64,000 nucleotides of DNA from Carettochelys insculpta (lineage: Eukaryota > Chordata > Testudines > Carettochelyidae): positions 173,923,501 to 173,987,500 of the forward strand of contig NC_134137.1 of the NCBI RefSeq assembly GCF_033958435.1. Direction: 5' to 3'. Under the pieces are notes generated by a model, which made no database searches, was not told the DNA's origin, and saw only the letters and a list, made by a program, of their open reading frames with translations. Below are positions 188 through 60,480 of the stretch, in pieces. Each line of letters opens with the position of its first letter. Within the stretch, counting starts at the first letter, position 1. The translations under genes and the position numbers were made by a program.

Positions 188-325
188 CTTTTCTTATTTC
201 TTTTCCCACTTTTGAAGGATCATGGAGTTCTTCATTTACAGTCAGGTAACTAATTGTCCCTTTCCATTCCTGCTGAGGAGCCAGTTTTTTCAGTCTGAGC
301 GCTAAGGGACATCTGGTGACAATAC
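188..325 (-). CDS. MX1: Mx-D coding exon 3 (switch I side of the GTPase domain)
   Basis: Bounded on the minus strand by an acceptor ending TGTAG and the donor GTACATG; phase 1 on both sides, 138 bp. It encodes [14 protein letters not shown] followed by a variable stretch ending GKEIRKG, the segment after the P-loop in Mx proteins. It matches the 138-bp exon at 54918-55055 but differs at nine of about 46 residues, mostly in the last 25. The donor (GTACATG) is weaker than the GTAAGTG of the other copy. Confidence 0.88.
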
Positions 326-3300
326 CTACAGTTGCCCATAGAGAGAATTCTGTTAACGACCACCCTTGTTATAGTACTTTGAACAGGGACAGAGAACACA
401 CCGCAGAACGGAGCTTTTCCTACTGTCAGCTTTTCAATGGGTTCACAGGGCTCACCCACTATGGAATATCTGAGAGTCAGGAAAGCACGCTGAGCTTTGG
501 CAGAGTGGTGAAGAAAACTATCCTCCTGTTTGAATGCAGCACGGTGCAGTGGCCATGCGTTAAAAGCTGTGTGTGGAAAGACTTTGAGCTTGTTTGAGAG
601 CTATTTCAAACAGTTACAGTGGGGATTGGAAACCAAGAATCTCTCTCTGGAGAGAGAGGAAATGTTTAAGGGGTACATACATTAGATGCTTTTTACCTTG
701 AACAGCCGTTTTCAGTATCACATGCCTACTATAGGAGGTACACTGATCTTGTTCTATAGTAGGGGAGTGATTTTGTACTGTATTGCATGGGAATGTTTTC
801 AAAATCTATAGCGGTATTAGTTCTATAGGGTTTTAAGAGCAATTTCTATAGAACTCGGTTTAATTCTATAGCCAGAAAGGAGCATTATGACCATCTAGTC
901 TGATTTTCCTCATAAAGGAGGCCAAAGAATTGCACCCTGTGGTTCCTGCATAAGGGTAATGTCTTCCTGTCGTACCAGCTCATATCTTTTAGAAAAAAAA
1001 GTCCAGTCCTGACTTTCTTAGAACCCCATTGGTTTCATGTCTATTAATCTCTGGGGCATCTTCCCTTAAGGAAGAGTGCCTGAAATTCATAGATTAAAAC
1101 AAAGGATGTGATTTCCACTCTAGCCTGCCTCACACCCAGGAGCTGGGAAGGTGAAGCAAAGATGTGGCAAGACTGTTCTGGGATTACTGTGGTTTAGCTG
1201 CCTTGACCCTGGCAGTTCCAGTGAAGTGGCTCAGAACACTAATACCTTTTGCCAAGCTTTAACATGGGGTGTTTGGTAAATATTTGGAACACAATGTGTC
1301 TCCTGTGTAGACATACGCTTTAGTGTGATGTTAGATGGTCTTTTGCATGCCCACACTGCTGCCTGGGTTGTGAAAGCTGCAGGTGGGTGTTCTCTCGTGG
1401 CAGCACACGGCTCAGATTCTACTTCTGTGATGCCAGTTTTTAGAAAAGAGGCTCCTGAGGTGGCCCCAGCAATTACAGGAAGAGTCCCGTCTGAGGTGTG
1501 TGGAGGGCAAGAGAGCAGTGTGTGGCTGGGTGGTGGTGGTGGTGGAGGGTGTTTAAGCCTAGGAGAGTGGTTTGGGGCTATTTTGTGTTTGGTCCCTTGG
1601 AACATATAAAAATTGCTGTGTGGCCCCCCAATGTAACAAGGTTGGACACCCCGGTCTAGATGATTGGTTAGGGAATCGAGAGAAATCTTGGAGTCCTTGT
1701 GTATAGTCTCTGAAAAAAAAAATTCCACTCCGTGTGCAGTGCTGCCAAAAAAGCTAACGGAAGGTTGGGAATCATTAAGAAAGGGGTAGAAAAGACAGAA
1801 AATATACTGCCTGTATATAAATCCATGCTATATGGCATGTAGATCGCGTCTCCCATCTCAAAAGATATATATTGCAATTTGACAAGGTTCAGAAAACAAC
1901 AAAAATTATTATGAGTACGGAATGACTGCTGTAAGAGGAGGGATTAATAAGGTTGTCCCTTTTGCTACTTGAGAAGTCCCAGAGGAGAGGATAACAGGGC
2001 TATAAAATCATGACTGGTATGGAGAAAATAGACAAAGAAGAGTTATTTACCCCTCACAACTCAAGAGCTAGGGGGAGGGTCACCAAATGAAATGAATAGG
2101 CAGCCGGTTTAAAACCCAAACAAAAGGAAGTATTTCTTCACACCCAGTCAGCCTGTGGTGCTCTTTGCCAGAGGATGTTGTGAAGGCCAGGACTTCTAGC
2201 AGAGTTCAAAAAAGAGTTAGATAATTCATGGAGGATATGCCTGTCAGTGGCTATTAGGCAGAATGGGCAGGTGCGGTGCTCCTAGCCGTTGTTTGCTGGA
2301 AGCTGGGGACGGGTCTTTTGATAACTGCCTGTTCTGTTCATTCCTCTGGGGCTCCTGGTACTGGCCACTTCCAGAGGACAGGTTCCTTGGCTAGACTGAC
2401 CCTTAGTCTGACCCAATAGGGCCATTCTTATGTTCTCTGGAATACAGGTTGCCATTATCTGGCTAGGGAGCACTCTGAAGTAGATTCCCTTTCACTCCCC
2501 ACTCCCCTGTGCCTTGACCCACTGCCCATGGCAGATAGGAAAGGCAAGCCCCAGCCCAGCCCCTTCCACCCCCAACGTCCCCTCCCTTCCACAGCCTTTC
2601 CTTCTCCCCTCCCCAAGACATACCTGACTCCAGCCCCCCTTACCAGCTGTGGAGCTGGACTGCTGTGCCACAGCCACAGCCCTCTCTGGCCACAGTGGCT
2701 CCAGCCCTCTTTGGATATCTGGAGAGCATAGGCAATTCCCCACTGCCCATGACCCCTTCTACGAATGCTGCGGAAGGAGTTGTGAACCAATACATGCTGC
2801 CTAGAGTGCTAAAGCTGGGGACACGCCAATCCATGGCAAAGACATACAGAGGAAGAGTGACAGATTTAAAACACTGACCAACACATGGGGTTTCATGCAT
2901 ATTTTAAATATTAAAAACAGTGTATGGAGAATGAAATTAAAAGCTGCATTATGGCATACAAGAGGGTGTGGAAGATATTGAAATAAAGATTGGAACTCCC
3001 TAGTCTGGCACCCTCAGGACCTGAACAGTCCCGAACGAGAGAGTTTGCCACATCAGGGGATGTCAGTTCTCGTCACTCTGCAGCTTGCCTATGGGCTCTC
3101 CCAGGAGGCCTCCAGGCTTGACCCTTCAGAACCTCCCTTGCCCCCTGGATGTTGCTGTACCAAGGATTCCCAGACCAGAGAGATGCAGCATGAACTAGAT
3201 GTTATCAGATGATAGTTGGATGTGCTTGAGACATTATTTCCCATCAAATATGAGCCACCACGAAAATGGAGGTGTACTGATTCTTAGAGGATTTCAGTCA

Positions 3301-9300: not shown

Positions 9301-12300
9301 GCTGCTGCTGCTGGGGGTCCATATTGCTTCGCCGAGGTGTGCGTGCCTATGGCTCTGCAGACCGCGTGCTGTGCAGGCTGCGTGTGTCTGGGAGGGGCCC
9401 TTTAAGGGAGCGGCTAGCTGTTTCCCCGGAAGCGCTAGTCCACCCTGTGACCCTGTCTGCAGCTGTTCCTGGCATCCTTATTTCGATGTGTGCCGCTTTG
9501 GCGTGTAGACGTTCCCTCACAGCGCCTATTTCGATGTGGTGCTGCCCAACGTCGACGTTGAACGTCGACGGCACCAGCCCTGGAGGACGTGTAGACGTTA
9601 TTCATCAAAATAAGCTATTTCGATGTAGCGTTCACGTGTAGACGTAGCCACTGAGGAAGAAAGCTGCAATCTCTGCTCCTGGAGCCACAGAGGAGCTGTG
9701 GCGATGGGGGAGGAGGGAACCCAGAGCCCAGCTTGTGCTCCTTGTGGCTGCAGGTGGGACAAGCCCCGTCACTGGCTGGAAAGGCTATGGGGAGGAAGCC
9801 CCAGACTCCATGCCCAAGCACCAGGGAAGGAGTGGGAGCCCTGCACTGGAGAAACCAGAGAGCTGAAGTGAGGGTATACCACCCTCATTTCTGCACTGCC
9901 TCACAGACTATGTCTAGACTGCAGGCTTCTGTCAACAAATCTTCTGTGGACAGAAGTTTTGTCAACAGAGCGTGCACCCAGACTGCAGATCTGTTGGAAG
10001 AGATCTGCCGGTCGGGGGCGTTCTGTCAACATCCCTGTACACCTCGTTCCACGAGGAAGAAGTGATGTCTCAACAGGGGGATTTTCTGACATTTGGCCCC
10101 CTGTGGATGAAATGTCAGAAAAGCCTCTGCCGACTGAACTGTCAGCAAAAAAATACACAAATTGCAGTGTGCAATTTGTGTATCTTTTGCTGACAGTTCA
10201 TCGCAGCCTAGGCATAGCCTCAGAGTGGGTCTGATCTCCCCATCAAGATCAGCCATGTAGAGGAAGGATTGCTCCTGTCCCTCCACAGCCTGGCCAGACT
10301 AGCAGCTGGGAGCCCAAGCTCCTAGCAACATGGAAAGATCTGATTTCACAGGGCAGGGCTGATTTCATGGTCCCTCATGGCCTGTTCATGTCACTAGCTG
10401 TTTGCTGTGAACACCAACCCTTCTGTAGTATTCTTGACACAGTAAAAATGTTTCTGCAAGCGCTATATAACTTAGCTAATTTGCACCAATGGCAGAAGTA
10501 TACATTGTAAAATTACTGAATTTTATATAAAGACACAATAAGAAAAGCAAACACATAATCAAATATACTTTGTTGAGTTATTTTGCTGACTGCAGTTTCT
10601 TATAATGCATCATAATGTTCTAGCACCTGTATTGCAATATATATAGTTAAATAATGAGGATCTTAAATTTTGATACATTCTCTATTAAACTGTTGCTGTG
10701 TGCTCTGGTAAAAGACAGTTGATGTGTGAATCAGAGCATGCAAAAAGAAGTGAGTTTCTGCTATAATTTTTTATGGGAGATAGATTAATATCTTGGATTT
10801 TTATGTTGATTCTTGCCCTACCTCCCCTAGGGAAGATTATTTTGTCCAGGGAAGAATGAATACATCCATTTTTTTTGAAGTTACATGTCACTTGTTTCAC
10901 ATACCATCGTCTGCATAACACTCAAGGACTCCTTACATTAAATAAAGCTAGCTCTTATTATTTACAGTGCTGTTCAAACTACACCATGGTGTCCCTAACC
11001 ACTACAGGCTGACTTCCTGAAGCCTCCTTCAAATTCTTCCCTCTGCTGTCCCTCCAGGTCTCAACCAGATTGCTCCATTTATGATATCTGTCACTTTGAG
11101 ATGACTAGTATTTTATGATTTAACAGGTTAGGTAGCTTCCTGTCTTAATCTAAATACTACATCCGTGTAGAGAGAGAAAAAGCTAAATGCCCGTATTTCA
11201 CACTGAAAAGAGAACACTTTCAGTAAATATATATCAAAAACACAAATACCAACTAGCTGTCTTTGGAGATAAGGCAATTATTACTGGGGGAAATATTTTT
11301 GATCCCCTGGATCATAACAGCAATGCTTATCACCTAATCATCTTACTATATAACTGTGTTATTAACTTTAATATAAACTTTTTCAAATGCTAGTTCTGGT
11401 TCTCAGTGTTACTATACAAGTATGAGAAAATATTAAATAAGATTTTTATCAGTTTCTATTAATGCCCCCCGTAAAAGAGAAAAAAGCCAAATCCCATGAA
11501 ATTGATTTTCCTTAAGATAACCATTCTAGGGCATAGCTGGAACTGGGCTGTGACCCTTCTCTGTCTTCTGCTATTTTCAAAGCCTGTAGGTGAAATACAG
11601 GTGCAAATCTTAGTAACTACATGACTGAGCATCTGGTCCAAGATTTATGTGTGTGCTCAGCAAAACAAGCAGTCCCATAGCACCTGAAAGACTAACTATT
11701 TGATTGATTAGGTAATGAGCTTTCATGGGTGAGACCCACAGAATAAATAAATGAAAGTTCACTACCTTATAAATAAAATGGTTAGTCTTTCAGGGGCTAC
11801 AGGACCGCTTGCTTTGTTTTGAAAGGATACAGACTAACATGGCTACCCCTCTGAGACTATTTACATGTGCTTTGGTTTACAAAGTACTATAGGAGCGAAA
11901 GGGATTTACACGCATGCATTCAGTTAAACATGTGCATAAGTCTTGGCTCCAATCACACACTGAGACAGAATTGTTTTGATTTGTGCTTGCAATTTGTGTG
12001 TAAAGAAGGGAGGCTGGATTGCTGAAAATTCAGCCCTCAATGACAGCAGCTGAGCATTAAAATCTCAGAAGTGGTATTGATTTTCACTCAAGTACCATGC
12101 ATCTGACTTACCTTATTCTGCTGATCTTCAAAAATACTGATTCCCTCTTGCTGTTTCATCTTTTCTTGGTATTTCTCAGACTCTGCCCACCGGGCTGCTG
12201 CCATCTGTTCCTGAATTGTATCTTTCCTCTCTGGAGGTATGCTCTGCAGCCAAGGGCGAGGCCCTTCAGTAGCTCCTTTTGATTCTGTCGGTTGCAGAAC

Positions 12301-16586: not shown

Positions 16587-16650
16587 TGTGCAGTGCTCAG
16601 TCCAAGGAAACTAACACAGATTATCTTTGTGCTTTGCTTTGTCACTAGCT
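16587..16650 (-). other. MX1: Mx-D 5'UTR exon (approximate start)
   Basis: The minus-strand donor GTAAGCC follows GGACTGAGCACTGCACAG, and the same arrangement is seen in Mx-U (GGACTGAATATGAGGCAG then GTAGGAC at 60159). The position just below the ISRE block and the homology to Mx-U support a first non-coding exon. The transcription start is not determined. Confidence 0.6.
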
Positions 16651-16745: not shown

Positions 16746-16747
16746 AG

Positions 16748-17362: not shown

Positions 17363-17430
17363 GCAACCAGGGGAAATGAAACTAACTTGCAAGAGCATCC
17401 TCAGCATCACTGTAAATTAGTTTCAGAATA
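17363..17430 (-). promoter_or_regulatory. Mx-D distal promoter block with second ISRE
   Basis: GAAATGAAACT at 17373-17383, followed by ATCACTGTAAATTAGTTTCA, matches the distal block of Mx-U (60396-60465) better than the proximal one. It is cut off from the proximal block by the Penelope insertion, which also removed the CTCCACCC part. Confidence 0.7.
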
Positions 17431-45600: not shown

Positions 45601-48600
45601 GTTCTTTGGTGCTTTTATTGCATTAAAAAAGCAGTGTTTCTCTTGCAGATCTAGCATAATATCCTATTTAGAGAATCAATGCATCTCAGCAACCTTTTCA
45701 TTCTTATTAAACAGTTTATAAAAAGCACATTAAGTATCTTAAATTCTTCACATTTACTTTATATCAGTTTTTCAAGATTCCAAAAGTTGAGGATCATGAT
45801 AATAGCTCTAATTAGCACTAATTATCTAATTAGTCTAATTATCTAATTATCTAAAAGGCTCAACAAAGGAGATCAAGTAACAGAATCCCTACTTTAAGAG
45901 GACAGGATGAGTGCATATCTGAGAGATTAAGTGATTTGACAATGGTTAAACAGTAGGATGTCAGCAGTGAGAACAGAATCGCGGTCTGCTGATGATTGCT
46001 GGGTATTTTTTTATTTTTTTGCATGACTAGTGTATTCATTGAAAAAAACAGTTCTGCTTAACCTGCAACCAGGTGAAGTTAATGCAGTAGTTTCAACTGG
46101 GGAAGAACTGGACTCTTCTAATTTACTGACAAATTACAAACACTTTTAGAACCAAAGTGAGTATTTCCCCCGATCATATCCCCTGTTGACAGCTGAACTG
46201 TTATCCTTCCTGCTCTATGCCTGACTGCCAAGCCAAGGCGCAGCATAGTAGACCACATGCTTCCAGACTACCAGAGAAGATTGTTAAAGGTTAGTCGCAG
46301 AAATAATGTTTACAGGCCCAGTTCTCCAAAACTGCAGGAATTGGGTCCTGTTCTTTCGTAAAAGTCACTGATATAAGCAAGCTGATGCACAGGATTTCTT
46401 TGTTACTTACACTAATGTGTGCCACAAGCTCAGCTGTAAGCTTCTCTGCCAAAACGGGGATAGTAGCCTTGTTTTCCTCCAGAAGAACTCTGAAACAGAG
46501 AAAGGAATATGAATGTCGACAACCCACGTTTGCCGGACAAGGGAGCGGTATCGTCTCTAGTTCTGCCGCACAAAGCAGGTAAAGACAGGTTCTTCTGATC
46601 AAGTGGGAATGGTAGTGAAGGTGCAGCCATGGTTTCAACACATCCTGGCAAATCTGCTTTTCTGCAAGATTAGTTTTGAAATTATGAACTGTTTGCTCAA
46701 CAGACTGAAAACAGAAAATGGTTCAGAACCATGACTTCAAAAAAGACCATTTCTGTATTATAAGAAAGTATGCCTTGCTATATATGGTAAAGAAACTGAT
46801 TCAGAACTGCTTTTGGGTTCAGAAATTCTCTCTTTGCATGAAATGCCATAAAGCAATCCTCTGTAGAGGACTGCGTTCACCTGGCACAGACCCTACCCTT
46901 CCTGCGGCTTTCATCGTATTTTCAAGGGGTTAGAACTATACACATTAATGCCTGAGCCAGCAAAGTACTTTAAAGCATGTGCATGTCTTGATTTCATTGA
47001 GACTGCTTTAGAGTTGAATATTCAACATGTTTTTAAATGGTTTTCTAGGGGATTAAAGGAAACTTGCATCTGGAAGTTCAAGTCAAGAAGATATTTGACA
47101 TGTAAACTTTTTTGCATTTTAAAATACAATACAATACAGACGATGCCAACAAACAAAACAAAACCAGGCAAACAAAAAAAACACACCCAAGCTAAGCTTG
47201 AGGATAATTCTTACTGCTGACCTAATCCAGATTTGATGGGAGTCAGGCAGAATCTTTCCACTGACCTCAATGGATTTTGGATTAGGCCCTTCAACTGTCT
47301 GAAAATTACCTAAAATGCCCATGGTGCTCAAAGAATGCTCTCTCCTTCTGGATTGCATCAGCCAGGGTCAGGTTGTTGTGAATGTCTTGCTGCCCACGAC
47401 ATTTGACAATCATATAACCCTTCCTTAGGTGGATGACAAGATTTCGTACAATGTCAACCACTGACTCCTCAGTTCCTTTGTCCACCAAATCTGGTTTTGT
47501 CAGGATCCCTGTGAAGTAGTGTGACGAGAAGATTAGATAAACACAGAAATTAATGAGGGGAAAGATCCATTTGGGTGTCTAGTTACCCAGTGCGGGACTG
47601 TTCTCTACAACAGGTACTGAATTGAGTAGTTCAGCAATCCTGCAATTTCCCCTCCTCACCCCCTTCCTTTCTCCTCAACTTTCTCAAGAGAACCTGAGGG
47701 ACATTAAAAGTAAATATTGTAAAAGCTCTTCCATCAATCTTTCCAGTTTTCAAGATATTTCTAGGCATAGTATCAGTGGCAGCAAGGTCCCCAAACTGAG
47801 TTATCCCTTTAGAGCAGTGGTTCCCAAACTTTCCATCATCACGCCCCCCCTTTTTTTGGTGAGAAACCTTCAGGCCCCCGACCTCTTCTTTACCATCATT
47901 CAACCCCCTTTTAACAAAAACGTCAATTCGTAATTTAAAATTTAAAGTAAACACAAAAACTTGGTATAAAAATTGCATTTTAAATTAAAAATAAACACAA
48001 ATCGTTTTCCTTGGCCCCAAAATTTAATACAGCAGTGATCGCCAATCTTTTTACAGCCAAGATCACTTTTTAAATGTCAGGGCAAGCCCCAAGACCCCAC
48101 CCCTTTCTTGAGGCCCCACCCTCTCCATTTCCCTCCTCTCCATCATCATTTGCTGCCACCAGTTCTTACTCACTCTCACTGGGTTGAGACAGGTAGTGTG
48201 GGCTCTGGGCCAGGAATGAGGGATTTGGGTGTGGGAAGGGGTGAAAGGTGCACAGCTTGGGAGGGAATCTGGGTGCAGGAAGAGGTTGAGAAGGGGCTGC
48301 TGGCTCAGGGAGGGGGTTCCAGGCTGGAGAGTATTGGGGGGGCAGGTGGAGTGTTGGGGTGCCGAGCAAACCACAGGCTTGTGGATGTGAGGGGGCAGGA
48401 ATTCAGGTTGGAGCGTATGAGGGGCTCAGTGCAGGGGCAGTTGGGAGTACGAGGCGCTCAGGACACAGATGTGCAGTGTGTGGATTGTGCGGTAGTGTGG
48501 TGGCAAAAGACAGGGGATGTGAGAGGCTTGGGACAGGGGGTTCCAGTGCATGATAGACTCAGGACTGAAGTGGGGGGGGGATGCAGGGGTGTTAGGGTGC

Positions 48601-51600
48601 TGTGGCCAGATGGGGCTTGCTGGCCAGGCTTCATTTTTAAATAAAATATGCCCAACAAACGTTTCAGCTTTGTCTTTATTTATGTGAGGGGTGGGGAACC
48701 TGTACTCGTGGGGGTCTGGGCAAGGGGAGGGGACAGCTCAGCTGGTAGCTAGGGGTCCTGCAGCTGCACGCCAGGTCCGGCGTCTCAGGAAGTGCGTGTG
48801 CTGCTTCCACTCCCCACAAATCTGGCGTGTTTCCTGAAAAGCTGGGTCTGCTGCCTTCCTGCAGGGGGAGGGAGACTGCCAGGTCTGTGCCTGCTCCTCA
48901 CTCCCCACGGCAGCTGCATGCTGCCTTAGCAGTTCTAGCTGGCGCGGATCTGGGACTCCTGCTCCCCTGCAGGCAGAAGGAAGTTGCTGTCAGGCAAGAG
49001 ACCCAGCTCTTCAGGAAACACACCAGCTGTTTGGGGTGGGGTAGCAGCGTACGTGCTTCCTGAGATGCCGGCTCTTGCGTGCAGCTGCGGGACTTCCGAC
49101 CATGCTGCAGGAAGGCAGCACTACCTCCATTTTTGCAGGAGGTAACGCCAGCGTGGGCTCCTTTTTCAGGTGGGGGATCGATGGGGGGCTAGGTTGCCTT
49201 GTGCCCCCGCAATTTCTTCATATCCCACACGTTTGGGAACCTATGTTTTAGAGGTTGGTTGCCTTTTATTGGTGCGTAACATTTCATCCGGCTTGTCCTT
49301 TCCTCTTAGAGGGTAACCTTTTGCAGGGTTGGGAGGGTAAGAAGGATATTAGAGCTCCATGACCAGACCCACCCCCACATCTTAATTTGCTTAAAAGTAG
49401 TTCTTACCTAGAGTTCTCTCTCCATCAGGGTCTACCTCTTGAGCCATTTTCAGTGCCTCTGTGGTTGCAATATCCACATTACTTGGCACCACTACCAAGT
49501 TTATGGTCTCTTGCTTAGCAATAAAAACTTTAATTAGCCTTTTGATCTGTAATACAATATGGAAAGAAAATCAGTAAAGTTTGATGCAGTTAATGACATT
49601 GGATGCCGGCTCCTCCGTGTCCGACCAGGTGGACTGGACACAATCATAGTATAAAACTGAACACGCAAAGTTCAGCGGTGGTGGACTACAGCCTGATTAT
49701 CTAAAGGTAATGTAAATGTGTAATGCAGCCCAGAACATATGGCTATGATGTCATCCTTGGGAAAGGGTCATAAAATCTTACTTAGTTCGTGTACACAAAT
49801 TGTTGATGAATATGCTAATGATATTTTTCCTGCATTAAAAAACAACCAAGTTCTAGTCTCTAAATGCATGCTAAGAAAAAAAATTAAGATGGATTATTCT
49901 GGTACTTCATGATCAGATAATATGTCAAACTAATATCCCAGTAGCATACCTATTGAAATTAAGCGAAATGCCTTGTTTCTGCCTTTCATAAAAATTAAAT
50001 AAAGTAGACATGAAGTTTGGATGATGTTTTTCCATGTCTGAATCGTAATGACCAGAGTTACTCATAGTTTTGAGTTGTGTTAGCAAAGGTTCACCCAGTT
50101 CTACTTATATTGAAATAATGTAACTATTATTCTGAGTTTCCATAAATATTCCCTTGTCCTATGTGTTTCCCTTCACTACCATTTTCTGTCACGTTCAAAA
50201 AGTACCATACTTTCTTCTTTTGCATCTGGAGATGGATCATTCAGGGTAATTGACAAGCACAGCTGCTACCACACCACCCGTTTTATTGTGGATCAAATGA
50301 ATAGAGTAGTTCAAGTTACTAAAGTAATTTCATCTAAAAAAAAAAAAAAGCAGAGGGATGGTATTCCTGCATTCTGGATGGATAAGAGAGCTCACTTGTA
50401 TTATCTTTGACACTGTCACAATACATTGCCCAAACCTTTCTTGTTCACTCACCCTTTTTTGACATTTGTCAAGTTTTTCCAATTCTGTCAACTCCAGTTT
50501 ACCACTTACATGTACTATTAGGGTGGTATTAATACACATATTTATTGTGTATCTCCTTGCACTCCTCAAGCTTTTGCTAGGACTACTTTACTGGTGGCCT
50601 TGTTCTTGAGGAACTCCTATTTGAACAATAAGCATTTTAGTTTATTATTACATATTAAAAGAAAGACAGAAAAATCATCACTTATTTCTACTTTCCTGGA
50701 AAAGATGGGATACCAGTAGAAATATATAAAGCAGCAAGTCCAGCAGCACTGGCAGCATTCCACAGCATGATCATCAGCATCTGGGAGGATGAAAACATAC
50801 CACAGGACCTCCGCGATGCTATTATTGTCTCCCTTTTCAAGAACAAAGGCAGCAAAGCAGAATGTGAAAACTACGGAGGCATATCCCTCCTCTCCGTTAG
50901 AGGGAAGATCATCGCCCGCATCATCTTGAATCGCCTAATAGTCAGTATTTCCAAGGCAAATCTACCTGAAAGTCAATGCGGTTTTCGACCTCGCCGGAGC
51001 ACAGCCAATATGGTGTTTGCTGTCAGACAAATACAGGAGAAGTGCATTGAACAGAACATGCACCTCTATGCTGTCTTCATAGATCTGACAAAGGCGTTTG
51101 ATACCATCAACAGGGAAGCCCTTTGGACCATTCTAATACGACTTGGCTGCCCAAGAAAATTTGTCCAGATTATACGCCTTTTCCATGACGACATGACAGG
51201 CGAAGTACTGTCTGATGGAGCCACATCAGCCCCCTTCAGCATGACCAGTGGAATGAAACAAAGATGTGTTCTCGCTCCTGTCTTATTTAACCTGTTCTTT
51301 GCATGCGTCCTTAACCATGCAATGAAAGATCTGGACCGAGGTATACACTTGAAATACCAGCATGATGGTTCACTTTTTGACCTCTGTCGCCTGAATGCGA
51401 AGACTAAGACAGTGCAGAAACTCCTTTCTGAGGCACTCTTTGCTGACGACTGTGCCCTTATGGCTCACACTGAAAATGATCTTCAGCACGTTGTCAACAA
51501 GTTTGCTGAGGCCTCGCAACTTTTCAGACTAACTGTCAGCCTCAGAAAGACAGAAGTTCTCCATCAACCTGCACCTGGATCAAATGCTCCTGTCCCGAGT

Positions 51601-54600
51601 ATCTCCATTGACGGCACTCGGCTTAAAGTAGTGGAGAACTTTAAATACCTGGGTAGTGTCATATCCAGTGATGGATCACTGGATAATGAGATCAATGCAC
51701 AAATATCCAAAGCGAGCCAGGCACTTGGCTGTCTGCATGTCAAAGTTCTAAACCACCATAACATCCAGATGTCAACAAAACTGCTTGTGTACAGAGCTGT
51801 TGTTCTCTCATCTCTTTTGTACGGGTGCGAAACATGGACACTATATAGGCGTCACATCAAGCAGCTCGAAGCATTCCACATGCGCTGCCTCCGTAACATC
51901 ATGAAGATCCACTGGCAAGACAAAGTGCCCAATCTTGAGGTCCTCGAAAGAGCCCAGATGACAAGCATCGAAATGATGATTATGAAGTCACAACTACGTT
52001 GGACCGGTCATGGCAGCCGCATGGATGCCAACAGAATCCCTCACCAGCTTCTGTATGGTGAACTCTCCCAGGGCATCCAGTGTATAGGTCATCCACGGAA
52101 ACGCTACAAGGATACCATCAAAGCCAATCTGCGTAGAGCAGTATCAAACCTAGGGACCTTGAGGACGCTGCCAGTGACAGAACACAGTGGCGTGCAACAG
52201 TCAGAAATACCTGCATTGCCTTTGAGGAAGACCGGTGCCGGCATCTACAAGACGCACGCGAACGACGTCACAGAACATCAGCAATGCACAACGCACAGAT
52301 TGCAAACTTCCCATGCACCATCTGCAGCAAAATGTGCACCTCTAGAACTGGCTTATACAGTCACCAGAGGGCACACCATAAGACCAATAACAGATGATCT
52401 GCACAGATTTGTCATCATCGGATCGATGGACTACCATTATTATTATTACATATTAAAAGAAAGACAGAAAAATCATCACTTATTTCAACTTTATGCATTT
52501 TTTTCACTCCATTAAAGTGTTCTACAAGGTTCAGAAAAAATGGGACAATTACTATTCTCATTTGTCCTGCTGTAAAGTTGCAATAACTCTGCTGAAGTTA
52601 GAATTTGATCCATCATGTAGGCTGAGACACAGTAAAAGTAATGGAGCTACTTTTTTTCTTTACTACACATTATTATCCACAGTTGAGAGAGAATATACTG
52701 GACAAAGATTTTTTTTAATTATGAGCCCTCCTTTTGCTGAATTTTGCCTACAGTGCTGCCCAGCATGTGTTTAGGTCTAAGTGTCCACAACTCTTCTTTT
52801 CAGCACTTCCTTCCTTCCAGTCTGTTGTCTACAACACTTTTAATTCTGATGGTATGGCAAGTTAGCTTTTTAGAACACTTTTGTCTAGATCTGTGGGGAA
52901 CAACGAGTTCTATAGAGTGGCTACTGCTCTGGTGAATTACCCACTTTATCCTGAAAATATATTTATTATTCAAGACTACTAGCCACACTCAACCAGCCAA
53001 ACAGCCATATGTGGCTAGTGGCTAGCAGTGTTGGACACCACAGGTCTAGATCCTCCAGGAAAACTTCATGTTGAGATTAATTTGTACATTTGGTCTTTAC
53101 TAATGCAATTTAACTGTTTTACAACTCAGAACCATTGTATTGTATTACCTGTTCTCCAATGTCTTGTGGCTGATTCCCTACAGCCACCCTCGCAATCCCT
53201 GGAAGATCGATCAGCGTCAGATCTGGAACATTCGGGGACCTAATTTCTAGAGAAATTAATTCTGGGCTAATGCCCACTCCTTCCCCAGCTATTGCATTCT
53301 GGGCTAGAAAGGAGGAGAGGGATTAGATTAGAACATAATCTGATCTGGGAAGCTCCTTTGTCACCTGGGTTTTTTGTTGTTGTTTTTGTTTTAAAGAAAG
53401 GCATTTTGGGACCCAATCCTGCCCACACAAAATCCCATGGAAATGAATGGGACATGACTGGACACTTTTGCAGGATTTGAGTTTTAATAATAATTGAAGG
53501 ATACGCTTTCAGAAATCTCAGTGTACAAAAATCAAAGTATATGGAGAAATAACAATATGGCAATACAATGAAAAACTTAACATTTACATAATTGGTTCCT
53601 CATCTCTTAAATGATGGACACGTATTAGTTAATCCTTGACAATCTTGCAAGGTAGCAGAGGAGTATGATACACATTCTATAAATGTGTGACATGAGGCAC
53701 AGAGATTAAGTGGGTTATCCAAGGCCATATAGCACAACAGTGGCAGAGCCAGGAACAAAAACAAAGGATAGCAAGTGCCAGTATTCTGCTTTAACCATTA
53801 GAGAACAGAACAATCAAACACCAGCTCACAGAAGTCTGCCAGTGCATGTGATAGATTCGTTGATTCAGAATAACATGATTTTATAGCTGTGTATTGCCAC
53901 TATTTCTTGATATCAAAGTAAATAATTTCTTAGGAGAGACTTTGAGCCATAATTTACTTATGTTCCTTGTATATCACTTCACTACTTTTTAAAATTATTG
54001 CTTGAAAACTTCACAGAGTAAATAGATCCATAAAAATAGTGTTATGACTAACAACATTGTCAGTAACTACACATGCTAAGCAAGCCAAGGACAATTCTAG
54101 CTTAAGCTTCCCAGCACAGACTGATAACCCTTAGGGGCCAGGGGTCAGGGAGATATTTTGTGCCATAATGTGGAACAGTGTACAACTAGGTAGTGCCATA
54201 TGAATACATCACCTATTTTCTTTTTGTCTGCAGCTAGGGTATATCTAAACTAGAGGGATTTGTCGGCAAAACAGCCATTTTGTCGACAAAGCCCATGGAG
54301 CGTCCAGATTTCCAAGGGCATTTTGTTGACAGTAAGTTGACCAAATGCAGTGCTTTTGTTGATAGACGTGCCCCTCTCGCCACAAGGAAGAACGCCACTG
54401 CCGACAGAGATCTGTCAAGAAAATGCTGGTCTCCAAGTTCCAGGGGGCCTTCTGTCAACAGAAAAGGCCTCCGGGACACCATAGAACCCTGTCGGCTGTG
54501 TTTCCAGGTGGCCATTTTGCCGACAGAGTAACCAGACTGGCCTGCTGCTCTCTTGCAGTCTGACCACGATCTGTCAACAGAAGTTTTGTCAGAAGATATC

Positions 54601-57600
54601 ATCCCACAGACGCTTCTGACAAGTCCCTCTAGTCCAGACAGAGCCTTAGAATGCTTGGTATTGGCAAAAGGCAAATGCAGGATAATGACTTAGGCCCATA
54701 CTAGCCTGAACTGGTCTGAAAAATGCTGGTGCTTCTGATCTTATATGAAATCAGATTAATTGTGCCAGCTCATCCCAGCTATGCATGCGGCTTCCTGTGT
54801 TCTTGGCACTTTGTGTGGTTATGATCAGGAGAGTAATCTGGGAAACGTCATGCTGCCTGACAGAATGGAATGAAACATGAAGAAGGATGACCTACGAGTG
54901 CAATCAACAGCACTTACCTTTTCTTATTTCTTTTTCTACCCCTGAGGGATGGTGGAGTTCTTCAATTATATCCCGGTAACTAATTATCCCTTTCCATTCC
55001 TGGTGAGGAGCCAGTTTTTTCAGTCTGAGCGCTAAGGGACATCTGGTAACAATACCTACAGTTGTCCATAAAGAGAGTTAATTCTGTTAACAACCACTCT
55101 TGTTACTTTGAATGGGGACAGATGGAGTACACCACAGAATGTTATTTTTTCTATCGTAATATGAAAAATGCCCAAAAATTTACAGTGTGTCTGATCTCCT
55201 ACATATAGCAGGCTGTCGAACTGCACTCTGTGGTTCCTACATCAGGCCAACATCTTTCTGTCATGCTAGTTCATAAAACATTCAGTCCTGATTTTCATGG
55301 AACTGTTAAGGAATAGCAGTTCAAAGAAACGTTCACTCTCACCTGCCTCACACCTAGAGCTGAAAGGCAAATTCTTACCACTGCCTCTAGGAAGAGCAAC
55401 TCCAGACAGGGCTTCTAGAACTGAGCTTTTTCCAGAACTCTGGTCTCCAATCACCGCAATGGCTGGCAGGGCCAGGTCCTTTTCTACTCCGAGTGCTCTC
55501 AGGGAGTCAATGAGATCAATACAGGGACGGATCTTCTCCTCATAGTGTTTGTACAAGGTGTTGTCTGCATTCTGTTAGAATAGCGTTAGATTTAACTTGA
55601 GCTCTTGTTTCACAGAATCAGGAAAAGCTAAACACATCTACGCCATAAATCATGCACATCATCAGCCAATTATATTTTGTACTGTGAACTATCAGCCTTC
55701 TGTAGTATTCTTACGCATTTCTGTAAATTCAGTAGGATTTAGATAATTTCACCAATGTTTGAAATAGCCTTTGTAAATTACTGAATTGATTGCCAAAAAC
55801 AAGAAGAAGTCCTGTGGCACCTTGTAGACTAACAGAGATTTTGGAGCATAAGCTTTTGTGGGCAAAGACCCGCTTTGTCGGGTCTTTGCCCATGAACACT
55901 TACGCCCACAAAAGCTTATGCTCCAAAATATCTGTTAATCTGTAAGGTGCCACAGGACTTCTTGTTGTTTTTGAAGATACAGACTAACTTGGCTACCTCT
56001 CTGATATTGATTGGCAAGTAAGAGAAAGCACAGTAAGAAAAGCAGTAACACCCCATAAAATGTATTTTGTTCAGTTATTTGTGCTATCAGCAGGGTTTTC
56101 TTCTTAAATGATCCATGGTAAAGTGCTAGTATACTTATTGCAGTATAGATAGTAAAATAATGATAGTCTTAAAACTAAGAAAGCTCATTACACTATCCCT
56201 ATTAAATCATTGCTGTATGTGCCAGAGAAACATACAGTTTGTATGAGAGTCAGATAATGCAGAGGTGAGTGAGGCTCTGCTGTGATTTTTTTTTTTTTAT
56301 GGGCTAAGAGCTGATGACTCTCTTTTAGATTTTCATGTTGCTCCTGGCTCTACTTCCTCCTTTCTAGGGCAGGACAGTGTGCCCAGAGAAAGAACAAATA
56401 ACCTGTGTTCAAAAGAAAAGTTGAGTATGTGATGTCACTTTTGATGTCACTTGTTTCATGTACCACCTGTTGCACAATAACACATAAGAGCGCCACCTTT
56501 CTTAAATGAAACTGGCTCTTTATTAGAGCTGTTATTTACATTGCTGTTCAAAATACTTAATAGTATCCCTAATTGCACATACAACTGGCTTCCTGCCGCC
56601 TGCTCCAAATTCTTCTCTCCTGCATCCTTTCTACGGGTCTCAAGCAGATTGCTGCGCTTACGGTATCCATGTTGCTTTGAGGTCACTGGGATTTTATGAT
56701 TTATGAGGCTAGACAGCTTCCTATCTTAATCTAAAATCTGTATCTGTCCATAGAGATGACATGCTAAATGTTCATCTTCCACCCCGCATTAAGAACACTA
56801 TTTCAGAAAAAAACTATCAAAACACAAATGCAGACTAGCTACCTTTGGGGATAAGACTATAAATATCAAAGGGGGAAATATTTTTGATCCCCAATCACAA
56901 TGGCAATGCTTATTATCTAATAACCTTACTATTGAACTGCTTTATTAACTTTAATATAAACTTTTCAAATGTCTATTCTAGTGTTAAGCACAGGACATAC
57001 TAACTAAGAGTCTTTATTTCTACCAATTCCTGCTGAAGGCACTGGAGCCTCATGTTAAATTACGCCCAACATCTCTTTAAAGCTTCCTAATTCATAAAAC
57101 TACACATTTCAAGGGAAAGGTGGAATAAGGCTGTGGCCCTTCCATTTTATATGCCTACATTTTTTATGCCTGCAAATGAAACGCAGATGCAAATCTTAGT
57201 AATTTCATGACTGATTAGTCGTTTTCCCCCTCACCCTGCAAGTATTTACACATGACATTTATTGAGTGCTATAGGAGTCAAAGAGATTGACTCGTGCAGA
57301 AAGTTAAATATGTCCGGAAGTGTTTTTCAGGACTAGTGCCCAGACTTGCATGCACAATCACTCAGAAACAGAATTGTTTTGATTTGTGTCTGCAATAGAC
57401 TGACCAGAGGTCCCGATTGTATAGGGAGAGTCCTGATATTTTGAGCTCTGTCTTATATACAGGCATATTAATCTCCAGCCCCTGTTCCGATGTTTCACAC
57501 TTGCTATCTGGTCAGCCTAGTCTGTGGACTGTGTATGCAGAAATAAGACCAGACTGCTGAAAAGTCAGCCCTGACTGCACCTGAACATTAATCTCAGAGG

Positions 57601-58246
57601 AAGGGCCAGTTTTCACTCAAGTGCCAAATAAGTGACTTGCCTTATTCTGTTGCTCTTGGAAAAGAAAGATACCCCCTTCCTGTTTCATCTTTTCTCGAGG
57701 GTAATTCTCAGCCTCCGCCCACTGGTCAGTTACTCTCTGTTTCTGAATCCGCTCATTCCACTCTGGAGGTGCGCTCTGCAGCCACGGGTTTGGCACTGCT
57801 GTAGCTCCTTTTGGGTCTGTTGGCTGTGGCCTTGTAAAAACATCTTTCGACAGAGTTGGGAGCGATCCTGGAAAAAATGCTTTTCTCTGTGCCGGGAAAT
57901 ATCCTGGAAAACCTTGTTTTGACTGCGCTGGGAATGATCCTGGAAATGCTGCATTTGATTGCATTGAGAGTAAACCTGGAAAAGCTTCACTAGTCTGTGC
58001 TGGTGGAGGCACTGTAACAAAAGGGTCTTCTGACTCTGGTGGGAGTGGTACTGCAAAATTTTCTTCTGACTGAGCTGGAAATGACCCTGCAATAACGGTT
58101 TTAGACTGTGCTGTGAGTGCTGCTGAAAAATTTGCAGTTGGCTCTTGGGGGTGTCTTCCTCCCAGGAAGACTTGTGTTTCTTTAGCCATCAAGTAAGCTC
58201 CATGCCCTGCCTGTGCCTGCACCTGATGCAGCAATGGTTTATTCAT
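30445..58246 (-). CDS. MX1: Mx dynamin-like GTPase, complete upstream tandem copy (Mx-U), 13 coding exons, 831 aa from the first ATG
   Basis: Interferon-induced antiviral dynamin-like GTPase. Coding join on minus: 57641-58246, 55379-55571, 54918-55055, 53149-53303, 49408-49546, 47310-47508, 46411-46489, 45307-45429, 44100-44241, 41617-41775, 35186-35262, 31705-31956, 30445-30678. The lengths sum to 2,496 nt with consistent phases. Visible in order: repeat-rich N-extension (1-202), P-loop GDQSSGKSS (244-252), DLPG (345-348), TKPD (414-417), CRGQ, then the stalk with [14 protein letters not shown]-like EQLVYCQD, loop L4 in exon 12, and the GED to the end. All GTPase motifs are intact. Chicken Mx is about 705 and human MxA 662 residues, so the excess is the N-extension. 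All introns are GT-AG except the first coding one (GC-AG). Apparently functional. Confidence 0.93.
30679..31704. other. Mx-U intron 12, no gene
   Basis: AT-rich intron sequence with no recognised repeat or open frame. Confidence 0.6.
31705..31956 (-). CDS. MX1: Mx-U coding exon 12 (stalk, loop L4)
   Basis: 252 bp, phase 0 on both sides; acceptor GCTTTTATAG, donor GTGAGTTT. It encodes [40 protein letters not shown], then a Ser/Asn/Ala-rich segment at the place of the disordered L4 loop, and [11 protein letters not shown]4 is the main virus-recognition loop in primate MxA (family knowledge). The L4 segment here is of ordinary length. Confidence 0.92.
31957..33283. other. Mx-U intron 11 part, no gene
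   Basis: No repeats assigned with confidence; pyrimidine-rich around 32700-32830. Frames here are short and overlapping. Confidence 0.5.
33284..33602. mobile_element. Harbinger-like MITE, 319 bp, TSD TTT
   Basis: The left end GGCTATATCTACAGGGCAC and right end TACTGTCTAGACATAACC are imperfect inverted repeats flanked by TTT (33281-33283 and 33603-33605). The interior has TTTCGA and AAAATAG motifs as in other members here. Confidence 0.75.
33785..33862 (+). repeat. Penelope-type tail fragment
   Basis: ATTTTGTTAGTCTTTAAAGT followed by GCTACTTGACTGCTTTTTTT is the same tail as at 16750-16800, here without coding sequence. Confidence 0.55.
34108..34874. repeat. AT-rich MITE interrupted by a second MITE
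   Basis: Stretches of TATTTCAAAATAA and TTATTTTGAAATAG in both orientations lie at 34108-34300 and resume at 34757-34874. The interruption is the complete MITE 34301-34756. A CTACACTACAC word near the left end resembles other ends in the window. The outer borders are approximate. Confidence 0.55.
34301..34756. mobile_element. Foldback MITE, 456 bp, TSD TAT (nested)
   Basis: Same family as 24476-24926: left end GCCCGTTTCTACACAGGCCA, right end TGGCCTGTGTAGAAACGGCC, TAT on both sides. It is nearly one long palindrome with GAGTCCGGAAGA and CACGTGA mirrored. It is younger than the AT-rich element it interrupts. Confidence 0.85.
34875..35160. repeat. CR1-like LINE-derived sequence
   Basis: AAGTTTTTCTTAATCTCCAA, CTAAACCTCTCTTGCTGCAA and CAGACCTTTAATCAAACTGG are words of a common amniote CR1-related repeat. 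The matching beginning (CATAGAAGTATTAGATGGGA) lies at 34020-34060 on the other side of the MITEs. It ends next to the Mx-U exon at 35186. Confidence 0.5.
35186..35262 (-). CDS. MX1: Mx-U coding exon 11 (stalk)
   Basis: 77 bp, acceptor CCCCCTCAG, donor GTAAGACA. It encodes [20 protein letters not shown] ending NLNRATK, a stalk helix matching the family. Phase 1 in, phase 0 out. Confidence 0.9.
35410..35890 (-). mobile_element. CR1-type LINE fragment, left part, antisense to plus
   Basis: Words such as CATCCCTGACAGGTGTTTGT, CTGCTCTTAAAAATCTCC and TCAGGCCTTGCTGATGGTCA belong to a CR1 family common in turtles. It reads on minus and continues at 37554 after an intervening LTR-like segment. Confidence 0.5.
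35900..37550 (+). mobile_element. Possible LTR-type insertion splitting the CR1
   Basis: Unrelated sequence between two CR1 parts. It has a TATA-like GAATATAAGCAGG near 36205, a GC-rich stretch after it, AATAAA signals near 37250-37275 and 37389, and a GC-rich end. This arrangement suggests an LTR or solo LTR pair, but ends and target duplication were not established. Confidence 0.3.
37554..38280 (-). mobile_element. CR1-type LINE fragment with ORF2 linker region
   Basis: The minus-strand frame reads [20 protein letters not shown], then [20 protein letters not shown] and LLNEDGKI, the stretch between endonuclease and reverse transcriptase in CR1 ORF2. It is degraded on either side. Confidence 0.6.
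38430..41424 (+). mobile_element. RTE-like LINE, nearly full ORF2, several stops
   Basis: Endonuclease: WNVR near 38530, [18 protein letters not shown]. Reverse transcriptase: [51 protein letters not shown] (the catalytic F-V-D-D form), [10 protein letters not shown]. The end reads [16 protein letters not shown]. The element ends with a (GAT)n run at 41394-41424, a usual RTE-type simple-repeat tail. Stops interrupt at about 39100, 39830, 39917, 40283 and 40935. It lies in Mx-U intron 10, antisense to the gene. Confidence 0.75.
38450..41383 (+). pseudogene. RTE-like LINE ORF2 (endonuclease and reverse transcriptase), broken
   Basis: Four longer open blocks (38450-39100, 39221-39832, 39955-40284, 40354-40935) plus a C-terminal block 41027-41383 make up one ORF2 of the endonuclease-RT type. 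The order and spacing of domains are normal for a LINE. In-frame stops (for example TGA at 39098 and TGA near 40282) and probable frame changes show it is inactive. The endonuclease active-site pieces (GDWN) and the RT metal-binding pair DD are retained. Confidence 0.72.
41617..41775 (-). CDS. MX1: Mx-U coding exon 10 (stalk)
   Basis: 159 bp, acceptor GATGTTATAG, donor GTGAGGTT, phase 1 on both sides. It encodes [20 protein letters not shown], then [20 protein letters not shown] and [13 protein letters not shown]. The YRGRELPGF motif is a hallmark of Mx stalks and contributes to oligomer interfaces. Confidence 0.93.
41776..44099. other. Mx-U intron 9, no gene
   Basis: A hAT-like end (AGTTTAAGAAACACTG) is near 42070. 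There is a GC-rich degenerate repeat at about 42240-42540 (recurrent GGGGCTG and GGCATC words) and a relative of the 4749-5065 repeat at 42655-42715. No coding exon is seen. Confidence 0.5.
44100..44241 (-). CDS. MX1: Mx-U coding exon 9 (stalk)
   Basis: 142 bp; acceptor CTAATTGCAG, donor GTGAGCAC. It encodes [20 protein letters not shown], then [20 protein letters not shown], matching the LFNQDI and LF.R...EF.KW segments of Mx stalks. Confidence 0.92.
44242..45306. other. Mx-U intron 8, no gene
   Basis: A CR1-like scrap (CTTACAGACTCACAGACTTA and AGTCTGCACAAGAACACC) is at about 44950-45040. The rest is unassigned. Confidence 0.5.
45307..45429 (-). CDS. MX1: Mx-U coding exon 8 (stalk)
   Basis: 123 bp, phase 0 both sides; acceptor CTCCCCTAG, donor GTAAGTAT. 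It encodes [20 protein letters not shown], then [20 protein letters not shown] and D. The KSLP.LE.QI start is typical of Mx. Confidence 0.93.
45430..46410. other. Mx-U intron 7, no gene
   Basis: AT-rich; a simple TCTAATTA-type run at about 45820-45855. No repeats otherwise recognised. Confidence 0.5.
46411..46489 (-). CDS. MX1: Mx-U coding exon 7
   Basis: 79 bp; acceptor CTGTTTCAG, donor GTAAGTAA. With the two bases of the previous exon it encodes [20 protein letters not shown] and ELVAHIS, the bundle-signalling/stalk junction (LAEKLT.EL..HI) of Mx. Confidence 0.92.
46490..47309. other. Mx-U intron 6, no gene
   Basis: AT-rich intron; no repeats or exons recognised. Confidence 0.5.
47310..47508 (-). 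CDS. MX1: Mx-U coding exon 6 (G4 motif)
   Basis: 199 bp; acceptor CTACTTCACAG, donor GTAATTTT. It encodes [20 protein letters not shown], then [20 protein letters not shown] and the helix to HHGHF. TKPD is the guanine-specificity motif and CRGQ the G5-like element; both are intact. Confidence 0.94.
47815..49245. mobile_element. Non-autonomous hAT element, 1,431 bp, 8-bp TSD
   Basis: The left end CAGTGGTTCCCAAACTTT and right end ACGTTTGGGAACCTATG are hAT-type inverted repeats. Flanking 8-mers CTTTAGAG (47807-47814) and TTTTAGAG (49246-49253) match at 7 of 8. There is no transposase frame; the interior is G-rich degenerate repeat with spurious long frames. It shares its left 100 bp with 23530-24457. 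Confidence 0.8.
49408..49546 (-). CDS. MX1: Mx-U coding exon 5
   Basis: 139 bp; acceptor GTATTACAG, donor GTAAGAAC. It encodes [20 protein letters not shown], then [20 protein letters not shown] and DGERTL, the strictly conserved middle of the GTPase domain. Confidence 0.94.
49547..50641. other. Mx-U intron 4, left part, no gene
   Basis: AT-rich; a poly-A stretch near 50336-50349. Nothing else is recognised before the LINE insertion. Confidence 0.5.
50642..52486 (+). mobile_element. 5'-truncated LINE with a long open reading frame and 47-bp TSD
   Basis: A 47-base direct repeat starting TTATTATTACATATTAAAAG lies at 50642-50688 and 52440-52486, identical by eye. The element between begins inside the reverse transcriptase and ends with an (ATT)n tail after GATCGATGGACTACC. 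It lies in Mx-U intron 4, antisense to the gene. Perfect duplication and an open frame point to a recent insertion. Confidence 0.85.
50767..52515 (+). CDS. LINE reverse transcriptase, 582-codon open frame, N-terminally truncated
   Basis: The conserved order is [40 protein letters not shown], then [49 protein letters not shown] (catalytic F-A-D-D) and [14 protein letters not shown]. The C-terminal part has [20 protein letters not shown] and RRW-like helices. A CCHH-type finger (CTICSKMC.., H..H) is encoded near 52310-52375 but in a different frame, so a frame change probably occurred near 52190-52300, and the last 100 residues are out of the true frame. The element clade is not certain. The RT core looks intact, but the endonuclease is missing, so it is not autonomous. 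Confidence 0.75.
   Translation: MIISIWEDENIPQDLRDAIIVSLFKNKGSKAECENYGGISLLSVRGKIIARIILNRLIVSISKANLPESQCGFRPRRSTANMVFAVRQIQEKCIEQNMHLYAVFIDLTKAFDTINREALWTILIRLGCPRKFVQIIRLFHDDMTGEVLSDGATSAPFSMTSGMKQRCVLAPVLFNLFFACVLNHAMKDLDRGIHLKYQHDGSLFDLCRLNAKTKTVQKLLSEALFADDCALMAHTENDLQHVVNKFAEASQLFRLTVSLRKTEVLHQPAPGSNAPVPSISIDGTRLKVVENFKYLGSVISSDGSLDNEINAQISKASQALGCLHVKVLNHHNIQMSTKLLVYRAVVLSSLLYGCETWTLYRRHIKQLEAFHMRCLRNIMKIHWQDKVPNLEVLERAQMTSIEMMIMKSQLRWTGHGSRMDANRIPHQLLYGELSQGIQCIGHPRKRYKDTIKANLRRAVSNLGTLRTLPVTEHSGVQQSEIPALPLRKTGAGIYKTHANDVTEHQQCTTHRLQTSHAPSAAKCAPLELAYTVTRGHTIRPITDDLHRFVIIGSMDYHYYYYILKERQKNHHLFQLYAFFSLH
53149..53303 (-). CDS. MX1: Mx-U coding exon 4 (G3 motif, DLPG)
   Basis: 155 bp; acceptor CCTTTCTAG, donor GTAATACA. 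It encodes [20 protein letters not shown], then [20 protein letters not shown] and [16 protein letters not shown] coordinates the nucleotide gamma-phosphate and water. Phase 1 in, 0 out. Confidence 0.95.
53304..54236. other. Mx-U intron 3, left part, no gene
   Basis: AT-rich; an old MIR- or CR1-like scrap may be present near 53690-53800 (GAGGCACAGAGATTAAGTGG, typical of ancient SINE cores). No exon is seen. Confidence 0.45.
54237..54645. mobile_element. MITE, 409 bp
   Basis: The left end GGGTATATCTAAACTAGAGG and right end TCCCTCTAGTCCAGACAGAGCC are inverted repeats extending into GGGATTTGTC and GACAAGTCCC. Flanking triplets CTA and TTA fit a TWA-like Harbinger target. Inner TGTCGACA and CTGTCAACAG words resemble 9909-10200, so the two may be one family. 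Confidence 0.7.
54918..55055 (-). CDS. MX1: Mx-U coding exon 3 (switch I side)
   Basis: 138 bp; acceptor CAACTGTAG, donor GTAAGTGC. It encodes [20 protein letters not shown], then [20 protein letters not shown] and KEIRKG. It is homologous to 188-325; the substitutions are concentrated after ISY. Confidence 0.93.
55379..55571 (-). CDS. MX1: Mx-U coding exon 2 (P-loop)
   Basis: 193 bp; acceptor TTCTAACAG, donor GTAAGAAT. It encodes [20 protein letters not shown] through [20 protein letters not shown] and RGSG. P-loop residues are unchanged from the family. Confidence 0.95.
55797..55995 (+). repeat. Penelope-like tail: inverted-repeat insertion in Mx-U intron 1
   Basis: Arms AAGTCCTGTGGCACCTTGTA and its inverse TAAGGTGCCACAGGACTTCT, with GGAGCATAAGCTTTTGTGGG mirrored inside, end with GATACAGACTAACTTGGCTA. 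It is flanked by ATTGATTG-CAA on both sides (near 55785 and 56008), a likely target duplication. It is absent at the homologous place in Mx-D. Confidence 0.65.
56010..57640. other. Ancestral Mx-U intron 1, alignable to Mx-D
   Basis: It matches 10520-12110 of Mx-D in order (for example TGCAGTATAGATAGTAAAAT at about 56140 and TTTTTGATCCCC at about 56880). Mx-D has its own Penelope tail at 11655 that is absent here. No gene. Confidence 0.6.
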
Positions 58247-58829: not shown

Positions 58830-58952
58830 ACCTGGCTGTCTTCGCTGAGGGAGGTCGATAGGAGTGTTTCTCCCATTGACCTCTCTTACTCCATGTGGTA
58901 GGGATTGACTGCTGACCCCTGACAGATCAATTTTGCACCTCTCTGTATAAAA

Positions 58953-60158: not shown

Positions 60159-60215
60159 CTGCCTCATATTCAGTCCAGATGAAAACTCTTAGGCTTTCAA
60201 ATACATCCTGTGGAC
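60159..60215 (-). other. MX1: Mx-U 5'UTR exon (approximate start)
   Basis: The donor GTAGGACT follows GGACTGAATATGAGGCAG; the sequence matches the Mx-D first exon (16587 on). It contains one ATG (ATGAGGCAG) that would open a short upstream frame. The transcription start is not known. Confidence 0.6.
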
Positions 60216-60480
60216 TTTGTTCTTTCTTTTCTTTCCTTTTCTTTTCTTCAGTAGCTCCACCCACGGCACCAGACAGAAAATAGAAGAAATGAAACTAACT
60301 CAGAAAACACCATTAGAATCACTGTGAATTGATTTCACAATGCCATACATTGTGCTTTTTTATAGTTTTGGCATTGGCTCCACCCAGTCTCAGACATAGA
60401 TCCAGGAAATGAAACTAATTGGCAAAGTGGCCTTTGAATCACTGTAAATTAGTTTCACAAAGGAAGGAGCTATCTTTTAG
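60216..60480 (-). promoter_or_regulatory. Mx-U promoter: GAAA tract and duplicated ISRE block
   Basis: Two direct blocks of about 110-120 bp, each with CTCCACCC, then GAAATGAAACTAA (60286-60298 and 60406-60418), then a GAATCACTGTGAATT/GAATCACTGTAAATT element ending in TTTCACA. The ISRE cores are of the GAAA-N-GAAAC kind used by Mx genes. Between the proximal block and the first exon, the minus strand has a purine tract of repeated GAAA words at 60216-60248, absent from Mx-D. The duplication predates the gene duplication, since both copies show both blocks. Confidence 0.78.

What the first reader, a model, noticed from the sequence alone, without database searches (positions are those of the whole stretch)
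188..60480. Tandem duplication of Mx in a turtle-like genome, both copies looking functional
Two Mx genes lie head to tail with alignable exons, introns and promoters. The upstream copy is complete, with 13 coding exons and every GTPase motif. The three visible coding exons of the downstream copy are open with sound splice sites. Sauropsids are usually described with a single Mx, so an expanded, diverging pair may mean divided antiviral duties.
Basis: partly seen in the sequence, partly recalled or inferred. Interest (0 to 1): 0.8.

Follow-up and report, generated by a model that had tools for sequence, protein, structure and literature searches.

The report
Ancient tandem Mx pair in turtle
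This stretch of pig-nosed turtle DNA carries two neighbouring, intact-looking copies of the antiviral gene Mx; the pair appears older than the split of the living turtles, and one copy has an unusual repeated tail also seen in other turtles.

Summary
Confirmed: two Mx genes lie head to tail on the minus strand. Upstream Mx-U (58246..30445) has 13 open coding exons, 831 aa. Downstream Mx-D shows three open exons; their 261 residues equal 261/261 residues of P0015, a 782-aa public Carettochelys insculpta Mx protein, so the window is pig-nosed turtle and Mx-D is annotated full length. A haplotype artefact is very unlikely: synonymous divergence is 0.18-0.66 by exon and other turtles have both types.

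The duplication is not new: public records already list several Mx proteins per turtle, three in Carettochelys. In a 70-row tree the U-type proteins, side-necked turtles included, form one supported clade, so U and D apparently separated before living turtles diverged. Mx-U has an N-terminal extension of about ten 12-residue repeats, found here only in turtles; Mx-D's is shorter and degenerate. Divergence concentrates in this tail and the exon holding loop L4; several GTPase-half exons look homogenised, recalling MxA/MxB in mammals. Conversion is suggestive, not proven. Both promoters carry two ISRE-like motifs, separated in Mx-D by a transposon remnant. Expression, interferon response and divided duties are untested. 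Ten library searches listed no paper on turtle Mx duplicates.

The parts
30445..58246 (-). Mx-U, upstream gene: 13 coding exons 58246-57641, 55571-55379, 55055-54918, 53303-53149, 49546-49408, 47508-47310, 46489-46411, 45429-45307, 44241-44100, 41775-41617, 35262-35186, 31956-31705, 30678-30445 (stop included)
   Evidence: Splice model and translation, 831 aa; Pfam Dynamin_N, Dynamin_M, GED
57641..58246 (-). Mx-U coding exon 1: 202-residue N-terminal extension with about ten 12-residue repeats; ends in a GC splice donor
   Evidence: tandem repeat of period 36 at 57836-57962
58832..58876 (-). Alternative first coding exon used by the public Carettochelys model P0014 (MGETLLSTSLSEDSQ), followed by GTAAGT
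12112..12564 (-). Mx-D coding exon 1: shorter N-terminal extension, GT donor
   Evidence: identical to the start of P0015
4220..4412 (-). Mx-D coding exon 2 (P-loop GDQSSGKS)
188..325 (-). Mx-D coding exon 3; the remaining exons lie beyond the left edge
   Evidence: full protein P0015 of 782 aa
59680..60480 (-). Mx-U 5' region with two TAGTTTCATTTC (ISRE-like) motifs at 60286-60297 and 60406-60417
16180..17440 (-). Mx-D 5' region with the same two motifs at 16680-16691 and 17373-17384, separated by a transposon remnant (open frame 16851-17381, GIY-YIG match)

Best explanation
The window holds two of at least three Mx genes of Carettochelys insculpta. Both encode complete dynamin-type Mx GTPases, presumably induced by interferon, that assemble through the stalk and recognise viral targets through loop L4 and perhaps the N-terminal tail. 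U and D arose by tandem duplication before the living turtles diverged. Since then gene conversion has patchily kept parts of the GTPase half alike, while the tail and the exon with loop L4 diverged, so the two proteins most likely share one motor but differ in target range. Shown: gene models, an annotated full-length Mx-D, a U clade across turtles, the repeated tail, and where divergence lies. Inferred: gene conversion, interferon induction, assembly, different targets.
For: 831-aa open model with the Mx domains; Mx-D 261/261 identical to P0015, which aligns 148-779 to human MxA 32-660. U clade of 20 rows, SH-aLRT 99, includes Emydura and Pelusios; exons 10-13 alone give U 100/98. U/D identity in Carettochelys is 50% in exon 1 and 68% in exon 12 but 93-97% in exons 2, 4, 5, 6. 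Ks 0.655 in exon 1 against 0.204 in exons 2-3 (Fisher p 0.0004). Exons 5, 6, 7, 9 are paralogue-type over 28 species pairs, exons 4, 8, 10, 12 orthologue-type. Repeats in 9 of 9 U rows. Four ISRE-like motifs against 0.01 expected, all in the two 5' regions.
Against: The exon 2-9 tree lacks a U clade but does not reject one (AU p 0.38), so conversion is not proven; 20 of 28 pairs are not significant in the site test, pairs are not independent, and rows were sorted into U and D by the tree. D-type rows do not form a supported clade. The standard ISRE spacing GAAANNGAAACT is absent from the window. The public model P0014 of Mx-U leaves out exon 1 and exon 10. No expression data were seen for either gene in this species.
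Confidence: 0.6

Rival explanations
1. An old duplicate pair kept by constraint and dosage: both copies make functionally the same protein, the GTPase half is alike because it is conserved, and tail and L4 drift with little constraint. No conversion or specialisation is needed.
For: The exon 2-9 data do not reject a U clade. Exon 2 has Ka/Ks 0.06, strong protein constraint. Exon 1 has Ka/Ks 0.49 and exon 3 0.61, relaxed but below 1.
Against: Protein constraint does not lower synonymous divergence, yet Ks in exons 2-3 is a third of that in exon 1. Exons 5, 6, 7, 9 show sites where the two paralogues of one species agree against another species. The tail repeat is present in 9 of 9 U rows tested, which is more than drift would keep.
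Confidence: 0.27
2. Mx-U is decaying or makes mainly a short product: the GC donor of exon 1 and the skipped exon 10 of the public model P0014 reflect real splicing, leaving a protein without the tail and without part of the stalk.
For: P0014 (591 aa) uses the first exon at 58876-58832 and lacks the 53 residues of exon 10; intron 1 starts with GC.
Against: All 13 exons are open and in frame; AAG|GCAAGT is a good GC-donor context (recalled). Other turtles have long models with this tail, and exon 10 is intact in frame with AG and GT.
Confidence: 0.1
3. Assembly artefact: the two copies are two haplotypes or a misjoin.
For: None found; read depth could not be tested.
Against: Ks between copies is 0.18-0.66 by exon; separate U and D proteins exist in Malaclemys, Emydura, Platysternon and Chelonoidis, with one contig length per species. 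A published Carettochelys assembly is HiFi with contig N50 126 Mb (PMC10960847, passages), though it is not known that the window comes from it.
Confidence: 0.01

Closest known systems
Turtle Mx1-like and Mx2-like proteins in NCBI/UniProt (P0003 and P0012 Malaclemys, P0009 and P0021 Emydura, P0014, P0015 and P0088 Carettochelys)
   Same: Same genes or orthologues; P0015 is Mx-D itself, P0014 is a model of Mx-U
   Different: The public model of Mx-U lacks exons 1 and 10; names Mx1/Mx2 are borrowed and do not follow the U/D split consistently
Mammalian MxA/MxB (MX1/MX2) pair, Mitchell et al. 2015, PMC4687636 (passages seen)
   Same: Two linked paralogues; local conversion in the BSE-GTPase region; divergence in the N-terminal tail and loop L4
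   Different: Independent pair: the two mammalian rows group apart from the sauropsid rows; MxB tail is 91 residues without the 12-residue repeats described here
Four Mx genes of Andrias davidianus, PMC9405346 (passages seen)
   Same: Several Mx genes in one genome
   Different: Amphibian genes; the passages seen do not discuss turtle copy number

Membership tests
Mx dynamin-like GTPases | Dynamin_N, Dynamin_M and GED domains in order | tested here: met
   Mx-U; Mx-D as P0015, precomputed domains
Mx dynamin-like GTPases | GTP-binding motifs [16 protein letters not shown] and the signature LPRGSGIVTR | tested here: met
   Found in Mx-U, P0015 and P0088
Mx dynamin-like GTPases | Closest solved relatives are Mx proteins rather than other dynamins | tested here: met
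   Mx-D (P0015): best matches MX1/MX2, E 2.8e-248, dynamins E 9.1e-66 or weaker; Mx-U GTPase part likewise
Mx dynamin-like GTPases | Induction by interferon | not testable with these tools
   Only ISRE-like motifs were seen; standard ISRE spacing absent
Mx dynamin-like GTPases | Antiviral activity | not testable with these tools
   No assay
Mammalian-type MX2 (MxB) | Orthology to mammalian MX2 | tested here: not met
   the two mammalian rows (Pan MX1, Galeopterus Mx2) group together, 100, outside the 68 sauropsid rows; only two mammals were used and they served as outgroup. PMC10224399 (passages) also says reptiles lack a human-like MX2

The most novel reading that the evidence does not exclude
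The N-terminal 12-residue repeat array of U-type Mx is a second, turtle-only virus-recognition module: it and the L4 exon change while gene conversion keeps parts of the shared GTPase motor alike, so turtles independently evolved an MxA/MxB-like division of labour.
Probability: 0.25. Interest if true: 0.65.

Novelty: new variant of a known kind. Interest (0 to 1): 0.42.

Why it matters
Mx genes are a model case of host-virus conflict, studied mostly in mammals. An old turtle pair with a repeated tail would be an independent replicate of the MxA/MxB pattern, so one could test whether divergence of tail and L4 with a homogenised motor is a general rule. It also shows that a public gene model of Mx-U probably drops exons 1 and 10.

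Tried and rejected
Haplotype artefact: rejected on divergence and on both types being present in other turtles.

Lost start codon in Mx-D: considered, because at the position of Mx-U's ATG the Mx-D sequence is not ATG; rejected because Mx-D has an in-frame upstream ATG, which P0015 uses.

GC-rich 4-kb inverted pair as a hidden gene: rejected, both copies hold a DDE_Tnp_4 transposase frame.

Standard ISRE (GAAANNGAAACT): searched, 0 matches.

Structure of Mx-D (P0015): mean pLDDT 49.3, pTM 0.32, too poor to use; no fold search was made.

Own-genome search for further Mx copies: not completed.

A first tree, trees by segment and a site count disagree in strength on gene conversion; I report all of them.

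Full report
Observation. The two Mx copies were checked by self-comparison and exon by exon. Mx-U has 13 coding exons from 58246 to 30445, 831 residues then a stop. All 12 introns end in AG and 11 of 12 begin with GT; intron 1 begins with GC in the context AAG|GCAAGT. Pfam finds Dynamin_N, Dynamin_M and GED. Mx-D shows exons 12564-12112, 4412-4220 and 325-188, open, each followed by GT. About 17.9 kb lie between the stop of Mx-U and the start of Mx-D.

Identity and completeness. One search found 5,832 proteins among the 7,994 candidates scored and listed the best 120. One of them, P0015, named Mx1-like of Carettochelys insculpta, matches the Mx-D fragment at 261 of 261 residues. P0015 has 782 residues and aligns 148-779 to human MxA 32-660, so Mx-D is annotated complete beyond the left edge.

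Age. A quick tree of 70 proteins (69 of the 120 listed, chosen by me, plus Mx-U; fish, most mammals, birds and squamates and the model P0014 were left out) gives turtle proteins of three types: U, D and C. The U clade (20 rows, SH-aLRT 99) includes the side-necked turtles Emydura and Pelusios. D-type rows also include these two but are not resolved as one clade; C-type rows (9, SH-aLRT 100) include Pelusios. U and D hence appear to have separated before the living turtles diverged. In Emydura, Malaclemys, Platysternon, Chelonoidis and Carettochelys the U and D proteins have the same longest-contig length, which suggests linkage but gives no positions. Pelusios has 13 rows in the tree, which may include alternative models.

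Mosaic. In Carettochelys, U and D are 50% identical in exon 1, 68% in exon 12 (which holds loop L4), and 93-97% in exons 2, 4, 5 and 6. NG86 Ks is 0.655 in exon 1, 0.219 in exon 2 and 0.181 in exon 3 (0.204 for exons 2-3); Ka/Ks is 0.49, 0.06 and 0.61. The synonymous contrast gives Fisher p 0.0004 on rounded counts. Trees of 27 rows by segment: exons 10-13 give a U clade (12 rows) with 100/98; exons 2-9 do not, yet the AU test does not reject it, p 0.38. Site counts over 28 pairs of 8 species (paralogue-type: orthologue-type): exons 5, 6, 7, 9 give 13:0, 58:2, 31:0, 27:1; exons 4, 8, 10, 12 give 1:27, 0:58, 10:152, 45:159; exons 2, 3, 11, 13 are mixed, 21:13, 29:57, 12:12, 58:36; exon 1 gives 12:1 on few aligned sites. 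For exons 2-9 against 10-13, 8 of 28 pairs have p below 0.05 and 20 do not; pairs share species, rows were sorted by the tree, and some rows are faulty models, such as Platysternon U in exon 6. This suggests, but does not prove, patchy gene conversion. Mitchell et al. 2015 (PMC4687636; passages seen) describe conversion in the BSE-GTPase region between MxA and MxB and diversifying selection in the MxB tail and in MxA L4.

Tail. Exon 1 of Mx-U encodes about ten 12-residue units (counted by eye; TRF period 36 at 57836-57962). Self-match at lag 12 has z 7.0-9.6 in 9 of 9 U-type rows tested. In 5 D-type rows z is -1.4 to 3.0, and some of those models are short at the start. Emys P0001, placed with D in the tree, has z 8.1 and at 1103 residues looks like a fused model. 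Four crocodilian, two bird and five squamate rows reach at most 2.4. A region search with residues 1-220 of P0003 found 18 of 1,139 candidates: 17 named turtle proteins and P0013 of unnamed source. That search did not list P0015 itself, whose tail is divergent, so it would also miss distant tails in other animals. In L4, 4 of 5 U rows shown are two residues shorter than the D rows; Emydura U is the exception.

Promoters. TAGTTTCATTTC occurs four times in the window against 0.01 expected, twice upstream of each gene. It resembles an ISRE with one base less between the repeats (ISRE form recalled); the standard spacing GAAANNGAAACT occurs 0 times. The two copies are 120 bases apart in Mx-U and 693 in Mx-D, where a GIY-YIG transposon remnant without counterpart in Mx-U lies between them.

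Expression. None seen for this species. P0013, a D-type protein of 741 residues, comes from a contig of 3,162 bases, too short to hold the introns seen here, so it is probably a transcript of some turtle (inference).

Literature. Ten library searches listed no paper on turtle Mx duplication; two of them asked other questions, one search showed 25 of 1,394 papers, and the library lacks most subscription journals. [quoted passage not shown] PMC10224399 (passages) states that fish, birds and reptiles lack a human-like MX2. PMC12047444 (start of abstract) names L4 as the specificity determinant of human MxA. PMC10984849 and PMC10247546 (passages) add nothing on turtle Mx copies.

Verdict. The copies are old turtle paralogues already present in public annotation, with a repeated tail that I found no description of and a mosaic that parallels MxA/MxB. 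Function remains inferred.

Noticed in passing
5574-9624 and 25511-29415: Two GC-rich copies (about 63% G+C, 78-88% identical pieces) in opposite orientation; both hold a DDE_Tnp_4 transposase frame and one a Myb/SANT-like frame, so a pair of Harbinger-like DNA transposons (name recalled). One lies in intron 1 of Mx-D, the other between the genes.
   Followed up: yes
38450-41383 and 50659-52515: LINE-like frames on the plus strand inside Mx-U introns 10 and 4; reverse transcriptase domain at 40285-40932 and 50659-52512, the second an open frame of 618 codons.
   Followed up: partly
24470-24932 and 34299-34756: Two long palindromes (about 87% self-complementary, 81% like each other), probably foldback-type elements.
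   Followed up: no
Proteins P0032-P0092 of Pelusios castaneus: Thirteen Pelusios Mx rows used in the tree (5 U-type, 7 D-type, 1 C-type); could be a large lineage-specific expansion or alternative models.
   Followed up: no
Protein P0001, Emys orbicularis, 1103 aa: Probably a fused gene model across the tandem pair: U-type repeated tail with a core that falls among D-type rows.
   Followed up: no
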